Shown: in pieces, positions 56,204-61,207 of the stretch
Layout: each line of letters opens with the position of its first letter
Position numbering within the stretch: position 1 is the first letter of the stretch
Assembly (NCBI RefSeq): GCF_001570525.1
Contig: NZ_BBXC01000007.1
Coordinates: 103,085-167,084 of the forward strand
DNA: 64,000 nucleotides
Reading direction: 5' to 3'
Origin: Herbidospora sakaeratensis
GTDB lineage: Bacteria; Actinomycetota; Actinomycetes; Streptosporangiales; Streptosporangiaceae
Notes under the pieces: model-generated
Databases searched by the model: none
What the model was told of the DNA's origin: nothing
Seen by the model: the letters and a program-made list of their open reading frames with translations, nothing else
Made by a program: the position numbers and the translations under genes

Positions 56204-57859
<1,656 letters not shown>

Positions 57860-57969
57860 CGAAATCCTCCAGTGTGAATGCCTCGCGGTTCGGGATGCGG
57901 GAAGCGCGCGACGCGGAGCAGCGCGTTGTTCTCCGGTTTTTCCCGATGCGCGACGCTAAACTTTTTGCC

Positions 57970-59163
57970 ATGTCCCGCTATCGGCTTCAGCCGACGCAGG
58001 CACAGGCGGCTGCGCTGCTGGAACATTGCAGGCACGCACGTTTCGTATGGAACCTTGCGGTCGAGCAGAGCTCGTTTTGGAAGCCGGGAAGAGGACACGC
58101 GCCGGGATTCGCGGAGCAGTGCCGCCAACTGACCGAAGCGAGAGCCGAGTACGCCTGGCTTCGCGCCGGATCGGCAATCGTTCAGCAGCAGGCGCTCAAG
58201 GATTTCGCGCGTGCCATGGCGCAATTCTTCGCCAGGACCCACCGGATGCCGACTTTCCGGCGGCGTGGACAGAACGAAGGATTTCGAATCGTCGCCTTCA
58301 AGAAGGAGGACGTGCGTCGCCTGTCCCGAAATGTGGGAGAGGTCAAGATTCCCAAGGTCGGCTGGGTCCGCTTCCGATGGTCCAGGGCTGTGCCCGCCGG
58401 CGCCAAGTCCTTCCGGGTCAGTCGCGATCAATTGGGACGATGGTTCGTTGCCTTTGCCGTCGCCCCGATGCCCATCGCCAGGCCGGGCAATGACGAAGTC
58501 GTCGGCGTGGACCGGGGGGTGGCCGTCAGCGCCGCGCTGTCCACGGGTGAACTGCTCAGGGCCCCCACTCTTCGGGCGGTTGAGCGAGCCCGGCTGCTCA
58601 AGCTGATCCGACAATTGGCCCGTGCGCGTAAGGGTTCCAAGCGGCGTGACGACGTCAGGACCGCGATTGGCAGGTTGAGGGCCCGTGAGACCGCCAGGCG
58701 CAAAGACTGGGTCGAAAAGGTCACCACCAGCCTTGCCCGCCGTTTCGATGTGATCGGCGTCGAAGATCTGAGAATCGGGAATATGACCCGCTCGGCTCGG
58801 GGGACCATCGAAGCGCCAGGGCGAAATGTCCGCCGAAAGGCGGGCCTCAACCGGAGTATTCTCTCCGCCTGCTGGGGCCGACTCGTCATGCGGCTGGAGG
58901 ACAAAGCGCCAGGCCGCGTCATCAAGGTGAATCCCGCGTTCACGAGTCAGCGTTGTTCGGTTTGCGGGGTCGTCGATGGAAAGGCACGCGAGAGCCAAGC
59001 TGCCTTCCGCTGCCGATCCTGCGGCCATGCCGGCAACGCAGATGTGAACGCGGCCCAGAACATCGAGGTCATCGCCGCAGGGCATGCGGTGAATGCGCGG
59101 GGAGGCGACCGGAAGACCGGGCCTGGGAACCGCGAACCTCAACTCGTCCTCCGTCCAGTGTGA
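57970..59163 (+). CDS. tnpB: TnpB RNA-guided endonuclease (IS605/IS607 OrfB type)
   Basis: A 397-residue TnpB. The N-terminal part is MSRYRLQPTQAQAAALLEHCRHARFVWNLAV. The split RuvC nuclease is complete: Asp in VVGVDRGVAV, Glu in VIGVEDLRIGNM, Asp in GNADVNAAQNI, with the zinc ribbon CSVCG and CRSCG in between. So it can be active as a guided nuclease that helps the element stay in the genome. The ATG at 57970 begins the family N-terminus; upstream in-frame ATGs at 57946 and 57874 are weaker. It runs against putA and pruA. Confidence 0.93.
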   Translation: MSRYRLQPTQAQAAALLEHCRHARFVWNLAVEQSSFWKPGRGHAPGFAEQCRQLTEARAEYAWLRAGSAIVQQQALKDFARAMAQFFARTHRMPTFRRRGQNEGFRIVAFKKEDVRRLSRNVGEVKIPKVGWVRFRWSRAVPAGAKSFRVSRDQLGRWFVAFAVAPMPIARPGNDEVVGVDRGVAVSAALSTGELLRAPTLRAVERARLLKLIRQLARARKGSKRRDDVRTAIGRLRARETARRKDWVEKVTTSLARRFDVIGVEDLRIGNMTRSARGTIEAPGRNVRRKAGLNRSILSACWGRLVMRLEDKAPGRVIKVNPAFTSQRCSVCGVVDGKARESQAAFRCRSCGHAGNADVNAAQNIEVIAAGHAVNARGGDRKTGPGNREPQLVLRPV

Positions 59164-59210
59164 GATGAGTTGGAATCCCGCTTGTTCACTAGCGGGAGGG
59201 TGCCAACCCC
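59060..59210 (+). ncRNA. predicted omega/right-end guide RNA of TnpB
   Basis: Right-end RNAs of TnpB systems overlap the end of tnpB and run to the element border. Here the end of tnpB is followed by nested stems: GTTGG at 59169-59173 with CCAAC at 59203-59207, and inside CCCGCT (59177-59182) with AGCGGG (59191-59196). The guide would begin just after the border, at about 59208-59210, and so match the 3' end of putA. Left limit is arbitrary. Confidence 0.5.
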
Positions 59211-60110
59211 AAGAGAGCGCAGGAAGAAGGCCACGTTGGCCGGTCGTTCGGCCAGGCGGCGCATGAAGTAGCCGTACCAGTCGTCGCCGTAGGGCACGTA
59301 CACGCGGACCAGCGCGCCCGAGTTGGCGAGCGCCTGCTGCTTGTCGGTGCGGATGCCGTAGAGCATCTGGTACTCGTAGGTGTCGCGGGCCCGGTCGTGC
59401 CGGTCGGCGAGCAGTTCGGCGATCGAGATCAGCCGGTCGTCGTGGGTGGCCACCATCGGGTGCCCGGCGCCGGCCATCAGCACCTTCAGGCAGCGCACGT
59501 AGGCCAGGTCGACGTCGTTCTTCTTCTGGTACGCCACCGACGCCGGCTCCCGGTAGGCGCCCTTCACCAGCCTGACCCGCGAGTCGCGCAGGTCGTGGCA
59601 GTCGGCCTCGCTCCGGAACAGGTAGGCCTGGATCGCCACCCCGACGTCGGAGAAGTCGGCCCGCAGGTCGCGCAGGATGTCCAGGGTGGAGTCGACCGTG
59701 GTGTGGTCCTCCATGTCGAGGGTGACCGTCGCCCCCGCGCTCAGCGCGGCCTCGCAGATCTCCCGGGCGTGTTCGAGGGCCATCGAGTCGTCGAGCGCCT
59801 GCCCGACGGCCGACAACTTCACCGACACCTCCGCCCGGTGGCCCAGCCCCAGCGGGGCGAGCGCGTCGAGCAGCTCCACGTACGCCTTCGTGGTCGTCAC
59901 GGCGGCGTCGGTGTCGCGCACCTCCTCGCCCAGATGGTCGATGGTGACCATGAGCCCCGACCGGGTGAGCCGGTCGACCGCGGCCACGGCGTCGGCGGTG
60001 GCCTCTCCGGCGACGAACCGGTCGACGACGCGACGGGTTGGCGGCAGGGCCGTGACGGCCTTGCGCGCGAGCGGATTCCTCGACACGGCGAGGAGCGTGG
60101 AACCGAGCAT
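59139..60110 (-). CDS. putA: proline dehydrogenase, C-terminus altered by the insertion
   Basis: First step of proline degradation. The protein (323 residues from ATG 60110) has LMVTIDHLGEEV, VSVKLSAVG, VTLDMEDHTTVDSTL, QAYLFRSEADC, RLVKGAYREP, VATHDDRLI, YEYQMLYGIR and VYVPYGDDWYGYFMRRLAERPANVAFFLRSL, which are the FAD- and proline-binding motifs. After FFLRSL natural proteins stop within a few residues; here the frame runs 18 residues into the TnpB element and ends inside tnpB. The catalytic part is whole, so it is probably active. Confidence 0.92.
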   Translation of the reverse strand: MLGSTLLAVSRNPLARKAVTALPPTRRVVDRFVAGEATADAVAAVDRLTRSGLMVTIDHLGEEVRDTDAAVTTTKAYVELLDALAPLGLGHRAEVSVKLSAVGQALDDSMALEHAREICEAALSAGATVTLDMEDHTTVDSTLDILRDLRADFSDVGVAIQAYLFRSEADCHDLRDSRVRLVKGAYREPASVAYQKKNDVDLAYVRCLKVLMAGAGHPMVATHDDRLISIAELLADRHDRARDTYEYQMLYGIRTDKQQALANSGALVRVYVPYGDDWYGYFMRRLAERPANVAFFLRSLGVGTLPLVNKRDSNSSHTGRRTS

Positions 60111-60193
60111 GCACACAGCGTAATTCGCCCGGAAAGTACCCTTCCACGGACATCCGGCCAAGTCTCTTCAGACAAATGCACAATAATGTCTGC

Positions 60194-61207
60194 ATGCAAG
60201 ACCTGGTGGACGAGATCGCCCGCCTGCTCGACGCGTCGGTCACCGTCGAAGACCGCGCCTTCGAGCTGGTGGCCTACGGCGTGCAGAGCGGCGTGGTCGA
60301 CGAGGTCCGCCAGGAGTCCATCCTCCGCCGCCGCGCCACCGCCGCGACCAAGGCCCACTTCGAGGCGTACGGGATCGCCGCCGCCGACCGCCCGGTCCGC
60401 ATCCCCGAGGCCCCCGGCTTCCTCGCCCGCGTCTGCGTCCCGCTGCGGCACAGGGGCGTCACCTACGGCTACCTGTGGCTGCTCGACAACGACCGGCTCT
60501 CCGACGCCCTGCTCGACCGGGCCGGCCCCCTGTTCGCCCGCCTGGCCGCCGCCCTCGCCCACGAAGCGCAGATCCGCCGCGCCCCCCTCGACGACCTGTT
60601 CTCCCCGAACCCTCAGGCCCGTGCCGAGGCCGCCCGGGGTGTCGAGGGCCCGCTGGTCGCCCTGGCGGTGGCGGCCGGTCCGGCCGAGGTGCCCATCTCG
60701 TGGTCACTGCCGAGAGACGTGCTGACCGGCCAGGCCGGCGCCCATCCCGCCTTCCTGGCCCCACCGGTCCGCGCCCGCGAGGCCGCCGCCCGCCTCACGG
60801 AGATGTACGGCGTCCCCGTCGGCGCGGGCGACCCCCGCCAGGACCCCGAGGACGCCTGGGAGAGCTGGCGCGAGGCGTTGAACGCGCTGCGGGTGGCGGA
60901 GAAGACCGGGCAGCCCGTCGCCCACTGGTCGGAACTGGGCGTCTACCGCTACCTGGTCAGGCTCCCCCATCACGAGCTCGCGGAACTGGCAGGGGAGACC
61001 GCCGCGCTTCCGGAGGACCTGGCGGTCACGCTGGAGACCTACCTCGACAGAGCGGGCCACGTGCAGAAGACGGCGGCGGAACTGGGCATCCACCGCCAGA
61101 CCTTGTACTACCGCCTGGGCCGCGCCGAGGAGTTCACCGGCAAGGACCTCTCGGACGGCCAGGACCGCCTGCTCCTGCACCTGTCACTCAAGGCGCGGAG
61201 GTTGTGA
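60194..61207 (+). CDS. PucR-type regulator, likely controlling proline use
   Basis: A 337-residue regulator. The N-terminal GAF-like part (ASVTVEDRAFELVAYGVQSG; FLARVCVPLRHRGVTYGYLWLLD) is followed by a C-terminal PucR HTH: LAVTLETYLDRAGHVQKTAAELGIHRQTLYYRLGRAEEFTG. It is divergent from putA by 83 bases, as in actinobacterial proline operons whose PucR-type regulator activates putA and pruA. ATG 60194 (MQDLVDEIARLL) is taken; ATG 60176 is also open. Confidence 0.87.
   Translation: MQDLVDEIARLLDASVTVEDRAFELVAYGVQSGVVDEVRQESILRRRATAATKAHFEAYGIAAADRPVRIPEAPGFLARVCVPLRHRGVTYGYLWLLDNDRLSDALLDRAGPLFARLAAALAHEAQIRRAPLDDLFSPNPQARAEAARGVEGPLVALAVAAGPAEVPISWSLPRDVLTGQAGAHPAFLAPPVRAREAAARLTEMYGVPVGAGDPRQDPEDAWESWREALNALRVAEKTGQPVAHWSELGVYRYLVRLPHHELAELAGETAALPEDLAVTLETYLDRAGHVQKTAAELGIHRQTLYYRLGRAEEFTGKDLSDGQDRLLLHLSLKARRL

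What the first reader, a model, noticed from the sequence alone, without database searches (positions are those of the whole stretch)
57866..60110. TnpB element splits putA from pruA and supplies a new end for proline dehydrogenase
The minus-strand order is putA, then a 1.35-kb element with an intact, oppositely oriented tnpB, then pruA with its ribosome site intact. PutA homology stops at FFLRSL and the frame ends 18 codons later inside tnpB. So the operon is interrupted without destroying either enzyme, and pruA may now rely on read-through or on a promoter in the element.
Basis: partly seen in the sequence, partly recalled or inferred. Interest (0 to 1): 0.65.

Follow-up and report, generated by a model that had tools for sequence, protein, structure and literature searches.

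The report
TnpB element parked on start/stop codons
A small TnpB mobile element sits exactly where the proline-degradation gene putA ends and pruA begins, and its relatives do the same elsewhere: most sit on the start or stop codons of genes, where their ends can rebuild the stop signal and sometimes supply a ribosome site.

Summary
A 1,347-bp tnpB-only (IS1341-type) element, 57860-59206, lies antisense between putA and pruA in this Herbidospora genome and one sister species; five other Herbidospora have putA-pruA uninterrupted, PutA ending SLGGK* in a TGATG overlap. PutA here ends in 22 element-encoded residues instead of GK. The wider pattern is the real interest. In 104 relatives (window copy excluded) the insertion motif TCAY, RTGA on the other strand, is called a gene start in 50, a stop in 49, either in 72; RTGA sites in the same flanks give 404, 150 and 504 of 6,152. 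At all 49 stop sites the right end, read antisense as TTGA, puts TGA back in frame, changing only the last codon's third base. The window copy has lost this (TTGG, plus 4 bp missing), which explains PutA's tail. Survival at harmless sites is the likeliest cause; target preference is not excluded. Function in vivo is untested.

The parts
57860..59206 (+). tnpB-only (IS1341-type) element, 1,347 bp, in the direction of tnpB
   Evidence: borders from uninterrupted relatives and family consensus of left and right ends
57856..57859 (+). insertion motif TCAT (TCAC in uninterrupted relatives); reads ATGA on the minus strand, start of pruA
   Evidence: motif is TCAC or TCAT in 106 of 108 copies
57860..57960 (+). 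left end (LE), non-coding
   Evidence: 2 of 101 bases differ from the G005 copy
57866..57870 (-). GGAGG Shine-Dalgarno-like sequence supplied to pruA by the element, 6 nt before the ATG at 57859 and 9 nt before the native ATG at 57856
   Evidence: sequence; anti-SD duplex -9.3 kcal/mol
57970..59163 (+). tnpB, RNA-guided nuclease, 397 aa, RuvC D-E-D residues aligned with those of a solved TnpB-type nuclease
   Evidence: dN/dS 0.255 against G005
59057..59206 (+). right end with conserved reRNA/omegaRNA-like scaffold; hairpin 59177-59196; ends GTGCCAA where most of the family ends GTCAA
   Evidence: 22 sequences, paired changes in stems
59207..59222 (+). presumed guide (first 16 nt of flank): last codons of putA read antisense
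   Evidence: position relative to right end; guide use inferred from PMC8612924
59139..60110 (-). putA, proline dehydrogenase, 323 aa; last 22 residues encoded by the element
56204..57859 (-). pruA, L-glutamate gamma-semialdehyde dehydrogenase (TIGR01236, 756.6 bits); native start is the second ATG, 57856
60176..61207 (+). divergent PucR-type regulator gene next to putA (context)
   Evidence: PF13556, 1.5e-20

Best explanation
A tnpB-only IS200/IS605-type element inserted antisense next to TCAC, which on the operon strand is GTGA: the putA stop TGA and the A of pruA's ATG (GGT AAG TGATGG). Insertion leaves that tetranucleotide to the downstream gene, and the right end, read from the operon strand as TTGACATCC in the family, gives the upstream gene xxT TGA. 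The upstream gene thus loses only the third base of its last codon and gets a stop back; the downstream gene keeps its start and, in this branch of the family, gets GGAGG from the left end. Such sites are where most copies persist, most simply because insertions elsewhere harm a gene and are lost. In this copy the right end later changed (TTGA to TTGG) and 4 bp were lost, so PutA now reads 22 residues into the element; pruA can no longer be coupled to putA translation and probably uses the element's GGAGG. SHOWN by sequence: positions, codons, tail, motifs, enrichment. INFERRED: order of events, selection as cause, translation of both proteins, guide RNA activity.
For: Uninterrupted putA-pruA in 5 of 7 Herbidospora genomes, insertion in 2. 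104 other insertions: start codon at the motif in 50, stop in 49, either in 72, both (4-nt overlap) in 27; control RTGA sites in the same flanks 404, 150, 504 and 50 of 6,152. The excess holds against control sites outside genes: first set, window copy included, either 22/28 v 103/337 (ATGA) and 23/31 v 125/496 (GTGA), p 7.5e-7 and 4.9e-8; second set, mostly from another actinobacterial family, 12/16 v 30/160 and 10/15 v 48/276. TGA restored in frame at 49 of 49 stop sites, last codon synonymous in 28, one residue changed in 21. Of 9 joined empty sites in the genus, all 9 have uninterrupted orthologues spanning the junction; junction exact in 7, alignment ambiguous in 2. Copies with no sampled relative of 80% identity or more: 33 of 34 at start/stop codons; with one: 39 of 70, as expected if badly placed copies are lost. 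Left ends of the TCAC group carry a Shine-Dalgarno-like sequence beyond shuffles (mean -5.5 v -4.1, 0 of 100).
Against: Left ends of the TCAT group have less Shine-Dalgarno potential than shuffles (-1.5 v -3.4), yet sit at starts even more often (30 of 49 v 20 of 53), so ribosome-site supply does not explain the start-codon pattern. 32 of 104 copies are at neither start nor stop. Even copies with a 90%-identical relative are at punctuation in 12 of 23, so selection must be fast or insertion itself biased. The age trend is strong at one cut-off (80%, p=7.4e-6) and weak at 82.5, 85 and 90 (p 0.07-0.09); rank test p=0.002. The 4-bp loss in the window copy is unexplained. The gene-start caller is home-made, and I had noticed the pattern before fixing the borders of the first set.
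Confidence: 0.72

Rival explanations
1. Target preference: the transposase, or the element's spread by TnpB-guided repair, favours translation start/stop junctions themselves (accessible DNA, or a longer hidden target motif), so the pattern is made at insertion and not by later loss.
For: Copies with a 90%-identical relative are already at start/stop codons in 12 of 23, against 504 of 6,152 control sites. The 4-nt overlap is enriched even among sites outside genes (11/28 v 16/337; 9/31 v 19/496).
Against: Copies without a close relative are at such sites more often (33 of 34 v 39 of 70 at the 80% cut). No conserved motif beyond TCAY was seen by eye in the flanks; no formal motif search was made.
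Confidence: 0.25
2. Different border for this copy: the element inserted after TTAC rather than TCAC, 4 bp nearer putA; the PutA tail then arose at insertion, and 4 bp were later lost on the pruA side.
For: In the uninterrupted site the flank next to the right end is preceded by TTAC (G002: TTACCCCCAAGAGAGCGC); the number of changes needed is the same (4-bp loss plus C to T).
Against: Only 1 of 108 copies has TTAC as motif, against 106 with TCAC or TCAT.
Confidence: 0.12
3. The TnpB here has been recruited by the host, for example as a guided regulator of putA-pruA.
For: tnpB under purifying selection (dN/dS 0.255); no Y1 transposase found in this genome; scaffold kept.
Against: RuvC residues are intact; the guide differs between the two species (CCCCAAGAGAGCG v CCCCAAGGGAACG), as expected of passive flank. 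In one search the only one-mismatch rows listed are empty putA sites preceded by TTAC (G002, G004); rows for G000 itself were not printed, so own targets were not excluded.
Confidence: 0.04
4. Chance: start/stop codons are simply the commonest RTGA sites outside genes, and the putA case is a coincidence.
For: 15-26% of control RTGA sites outside genes are called starts, so the base rate is not small.
Against: For 'start or stop' the excess over controls outside genes is 2.6- to 4-fold in both sets and for both motifs.
Confidence: 0.03

Closest known systems
IS1341 group of the IS200/IS605 family (tnpB alone between LE and RE; PMC9956272, passages read)
   Same: One tnpB gene, short non-coding ends, insertion 3' of a short motif without target duplication, no own transposase.
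   Different: Motif TCAY, whose complement RTGA is a start and a stop codon; right end TCAA restores TGA. None of 9 paper searches listed a paper that describes this.
ISDra2 / IS605 with TnpB nuclease and reRNA (PMC8612924, passages read)
   Same: TnpB with RuvC residues, guide from right end plus about 16 nt of flank, motif next to the target.
   Different: ISDra2 uses TTGAT and carries tnpA; here no Y1 transposase was found in the genome, and the window copy's guide is shifted by 4 nt from the TCAC motif of the empty site.
IStron (PMC4227781, start of abstract and passages read)
   Same: An IS605-related element that makes its insertion harmless to the host gene.
   Different: IStrons splice out as RNA through a group I intron; no Rfam family matched here. 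Here the harmless state comes from codon punctuation.
Stop/start gene overlaps of 4 and 1 nt (PMC10666635, abstract read)
   Same: The insertion site in putA-pruA is a 1-nt overlap (TGATG); 27 of 104 other copies sit in 4-nt overlaps.
   Different: After insertion the two genes are 1.3 kb apart, so coupling by reinitiation should be lost.

Membership tests
IS1341-type IS200/IS605 element | single tnpB gene of the guided_TnpB family | tested here: met
   no second gene assigned between the borders
IS1341-type IS200/IS605 element | defined left and right ends next to a short motif, no target duplication | tested here: met
   family copies: exact in 7 of 9 junctions; the window copy has in addition a 4-bp loss
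IS1341-type IS200/IS605 element | subterminal hairpin in the right end | tested here: met
IS1341-type IS200/IS605 element | mobilised by a Y1 transposase | tested here: inconclusive
   PF01797 found in 1 of 7 Herbidospora genomes (G002), not in G000
TnpB nuclease | RuvC catalytic D, E, D and zinc-ribbon cysteines | tested here: met
   alignment
TnpB nuclease | RNA-guided DNA cleavage | not testable with these tools
   needs protein and RNA
TldR (nuclease-dead TnpB regulators; definition recalled) | loss of RuvC catalytic residues | tested here: not met
IStron | group I intron in the element | tested here: not met
   no Rfam match up to E=1 in 57600-60300

The most novel reading that the evidence does not exclude
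A lineage of TnpB elements in Actinobacteria has ends adapted to gene punctuation: the motif is the complement of the RTGA stop/start overlap, the right end rebuilds the stop in frame, and in one branch the left end supplies a ribosome site, so that the element can enter translated operons at almost no cost, a codon-level counterpart of a self-splicing intron.
Probability: 0.4. Interest if true: 0.75.

Novelty: new variant of a known kind. Interest (0 to 1): 0.6.

Why it matters
TnpB elements are ancestors of Cas12 and very common, but how they avoid harming hosts is mostly discussed through excision and intron splicing. Here a simple rule, visible in sequence, links the insertion motif to the genetic code and predicts which insertions persist. 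It is directly testable with an active relative, and it warns annotators that new C-terminal tails and new ribosome sites can be element-made.

Tried and rejected
Ribosome-site supply as the general reason for the start-codon pattern: rejected, because the TCAT group lacks it. A promoter in the element for pruA: 0 found by a sigma-70 scan, not informative for Streptosporangiaceae. Terminator between the genes: one weak match inside putA, with 1 found against a shuffle mean of 1.4. Group I intron: none. A second putA: none; of 23 aldehyde dehydrogenase matches only pruA passes the TIGR01236 cut-off. Selection for keeping TTGA at stop sites: 0 of 49 changed v 3 of 55 elsewhere, p=0.25, no support. 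A 40-residue start of one downstream protein gave no NCBIfam match; longer pieces did.

Rows dropped: of 82 matches, 76 were used as loci (window included) and 6, at contig edges or truncated, were not fetched; 3 degenerate Herbidospora copies were added (79 loci in all). Of these, 8 had no usable border at first (L188, L189, L192, L196, L205, L206, L241, L246); L188, L189 and L192 were resolved later. L244 was dropped as doubtful and L249 as the same insertion as the window. Of 36 new matches, 35 were fetched and L284 dropped; L273 was dropped as the same site as L257. The genome search scores only a few candidates per genome in large runs, so copies are missed. The sets of 69 and 37 include the window copy and L273; the 104 exclude both. 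Borders were set by eye from the consensus of the ends; for the first set I had already noticed the start codons. The lists of start and stop copies were typed from the printed results.

Full report
OBSERVATION. The window is G000:C7:103085-167084 of an 8.6-Mb genome. The nearest named loci for its PutA are Herbidospora (94-98%). On the minus strand putA (60110-59139) is followed by pruA (57859-56204), with a + strand tnpB between them. Families: PutA, Pro_dh PF01619; pruA, TIGR01236 at 756.6 bits; tnpB, NF040570 guided_TnpB at 238.9 bits. This genome has one putA and one match above the TIGR01236 cut-off.

BORDERS. Among the seven Herbidospora genomes held, two (G000, G005) have the element and five (G001, G002, G003, G004, G006) have putA and pruA joined. 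The five joined sites, printed, read ...GGG GGT AAG TGATGG: PutA ends in GGK, and TGA overlaps the ATG of pruA by one base. In the window the putA side runs ...CTTGGGG then TTGGCACCCTCCC (element), and the pruA side runs ...GGAGGATTTCG then ATGATGGACGCC. Against the empty site four bases (GTAA) are missing and GTGA has become ATGA. PutA now ends FFLRSLG-VGTLPLVNKRDSNSSHTGRRTS*, with the same tail in G005. The solved proline dehydrogenase 4h6q aligns to residue 299 of 323, so the tail follows the catalytic domain.

RIBOSOME SITE. The native site GGGGGTAAGTG-ATG (anti-SD duplex -9.8 to -10.7 kcal/mol in the five Herbidospora) remained at the putA end. The GGAGG now before pruA (-9.3) is the family's left end read antisense. 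It is a replacement of similar strength, not an intact site.

THE ELEMENT. tnpB differs from the G005 copy with dN 0.018, dS 0.072, ratio 0.255; 2 of 101 left-end and 1 of 46 right-end bases differ. RuvC and zinc-ribbon motifs align with a solved TnpB-type nuclease. The last 150 nt of the element form a scaffold with paired changes in 22 relatives, in the place where ISDra2 makes its reRNA (PMC8612924, passages read). A Y1 transposase was found in 1 of 7 genomes and not in this one, so this copy is probably stranded.

THE FAMILY PATTERN. Copies of the tnpB were collected in the family and the class and their ends defined. The four bases 5' of the left end are TCAC in 54, TCAT in 52, CCAT in 1 and TTAC in 1 of 108 copies, window and G005 included; the right end, read antisense, begins TTGA in 102 and TTGG in 6. 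TCAY read from the other strand is RTGA, a start codon (RTG) fused to a stop codon (TGA). A codon-usage test was applied alike to the insertion points and to every other RTGA in the flanks. In 104 independent insertions without the window copy: start codon 50, stop codon 49, either 72, both 27; controls 404, 150, 504 and 50 of 6,152. The excess holds at three thresholds, in a second set of 37 drawn mostly from another family, and against controls outside genes for nearly all measures; the exception is GTGA starts outside genes in the second set (3/15 v 33/276, p=0.28).

STOP CODONS. At all 49 stop sites the sequence after insertion is xxT TGA: the upstream gene keeps its reading-frame end and changes only the third base of its last codon, silently in 28 and by one residue in 21. 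Examples named by family: NuoA, matched to residue 199 of a 200-residue piece; RapZ followed by YvcK; IolC followed by IolB; a protein ending before an RNase H gene. Nine joined junctions of the genus were checked against relatives: all nine have an uninterrupted orthologue across the junction; the junction is exact in seven (five without any gap, two with a small gap beyond RTGA) and ambiguous in two, L176 and L177. So clean insertion is the rule, and the 4-bp loss at putA is an exception.

START CODONS AND RIBOSOME SITES. In the TCAC group the left end carries a Shine-Dalgarno-like sequence (mean duplex -5.5, shuffles -4.1 with sd 0.41, 0 of 100 reach it); in the TCAT group it is -1.5 against -3.4, so it is lacking. 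TCAT copies nevertheless sit on starts (30 of 49), and the native flanks they were cut from average -6.3. How those downstream genes are translated, if they are, is open. Short distances are needed for reinitiation (PMC10666635, abstract), so coupling should be lost after any such insertion.

CAUSE. Copies with no sampled relative at 80% identity or more are at start/stop codons in 33 of 34; those with one, in 39 of 70 (p=7.4e-6). At cuts of 75, 77.5, 82.5, 85 and 90% p is 0.054, 0.020, 0.089, 0.088 and 0.071; rank test p=0.002. This favours loss of badly placed copies. Yet 12 of 23 copies with a 90% relative are also at such sites, so biased insertion is not excluded.

THIS COPY. With TCAC as motif, the fresh insertion would have left PutA as SLGGN* and pruA its start (inference from the sequence). 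The right end then changed TTGA to TTGG, and four bases were lost, giving the 22-residue tail. The alternative, insertion after TTAC, would make the tail at once; it is less likely because TTAC is rare as motif. As the flanks stand, the guide does not match the sequence directly 3' of TCAC in empty relatives.

NOVELTY. Nine paper searches listed no paper describing TnpB or IS605 elements at start/stop codons; terms were searched in PMC8612924, PMC9956272, PMC4227781, PMC9208149 and PMC11043419, and in none does 'start codon' occur in the main text held. Most subscription papers are not in that library. The element itself is a member of a known kind; the punctuation habit looks new, as far as these searches go.

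Noticed in passing
L188, L189, L192 (left-end region, antisense to tnpB); diverged forms in L262, L267, L272: Relatives with a long left end (about 245 nt) carry a small ORF antisense to tnpB, MKQITLRLPDD..., a ribbon-helix-helix protein (FitA-like_RHH 1.1e-8, Arc 3.7e-6). It lies beside the tnpB promoter region and could be a repressor of tnpB. The diverged forms match Arc weakly (0.012, 0.046) or not at all.
   Followed up: partly
G000:C11:532233-539325 (L246) and G001:C34 (L183): The same nuoA-nuoB junction holds a tnpB element in two Herbidospora species, the G000 copy damaged in its left end and in tnpB: apparently an old shared insertion in complex I genes.
   Followed up: partly
window 57970-59160 v 56207-57859: tnpB has a lower synonymous divergence between G000 and G005 (0.072) than pruA (0.179) although both lie at the same place; not explained.
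   Followed up: no
window 60176-61207: A PucR-type regulator gene is divergent from putA, a likely activator of the operon (role inferred).
   Followed up: no
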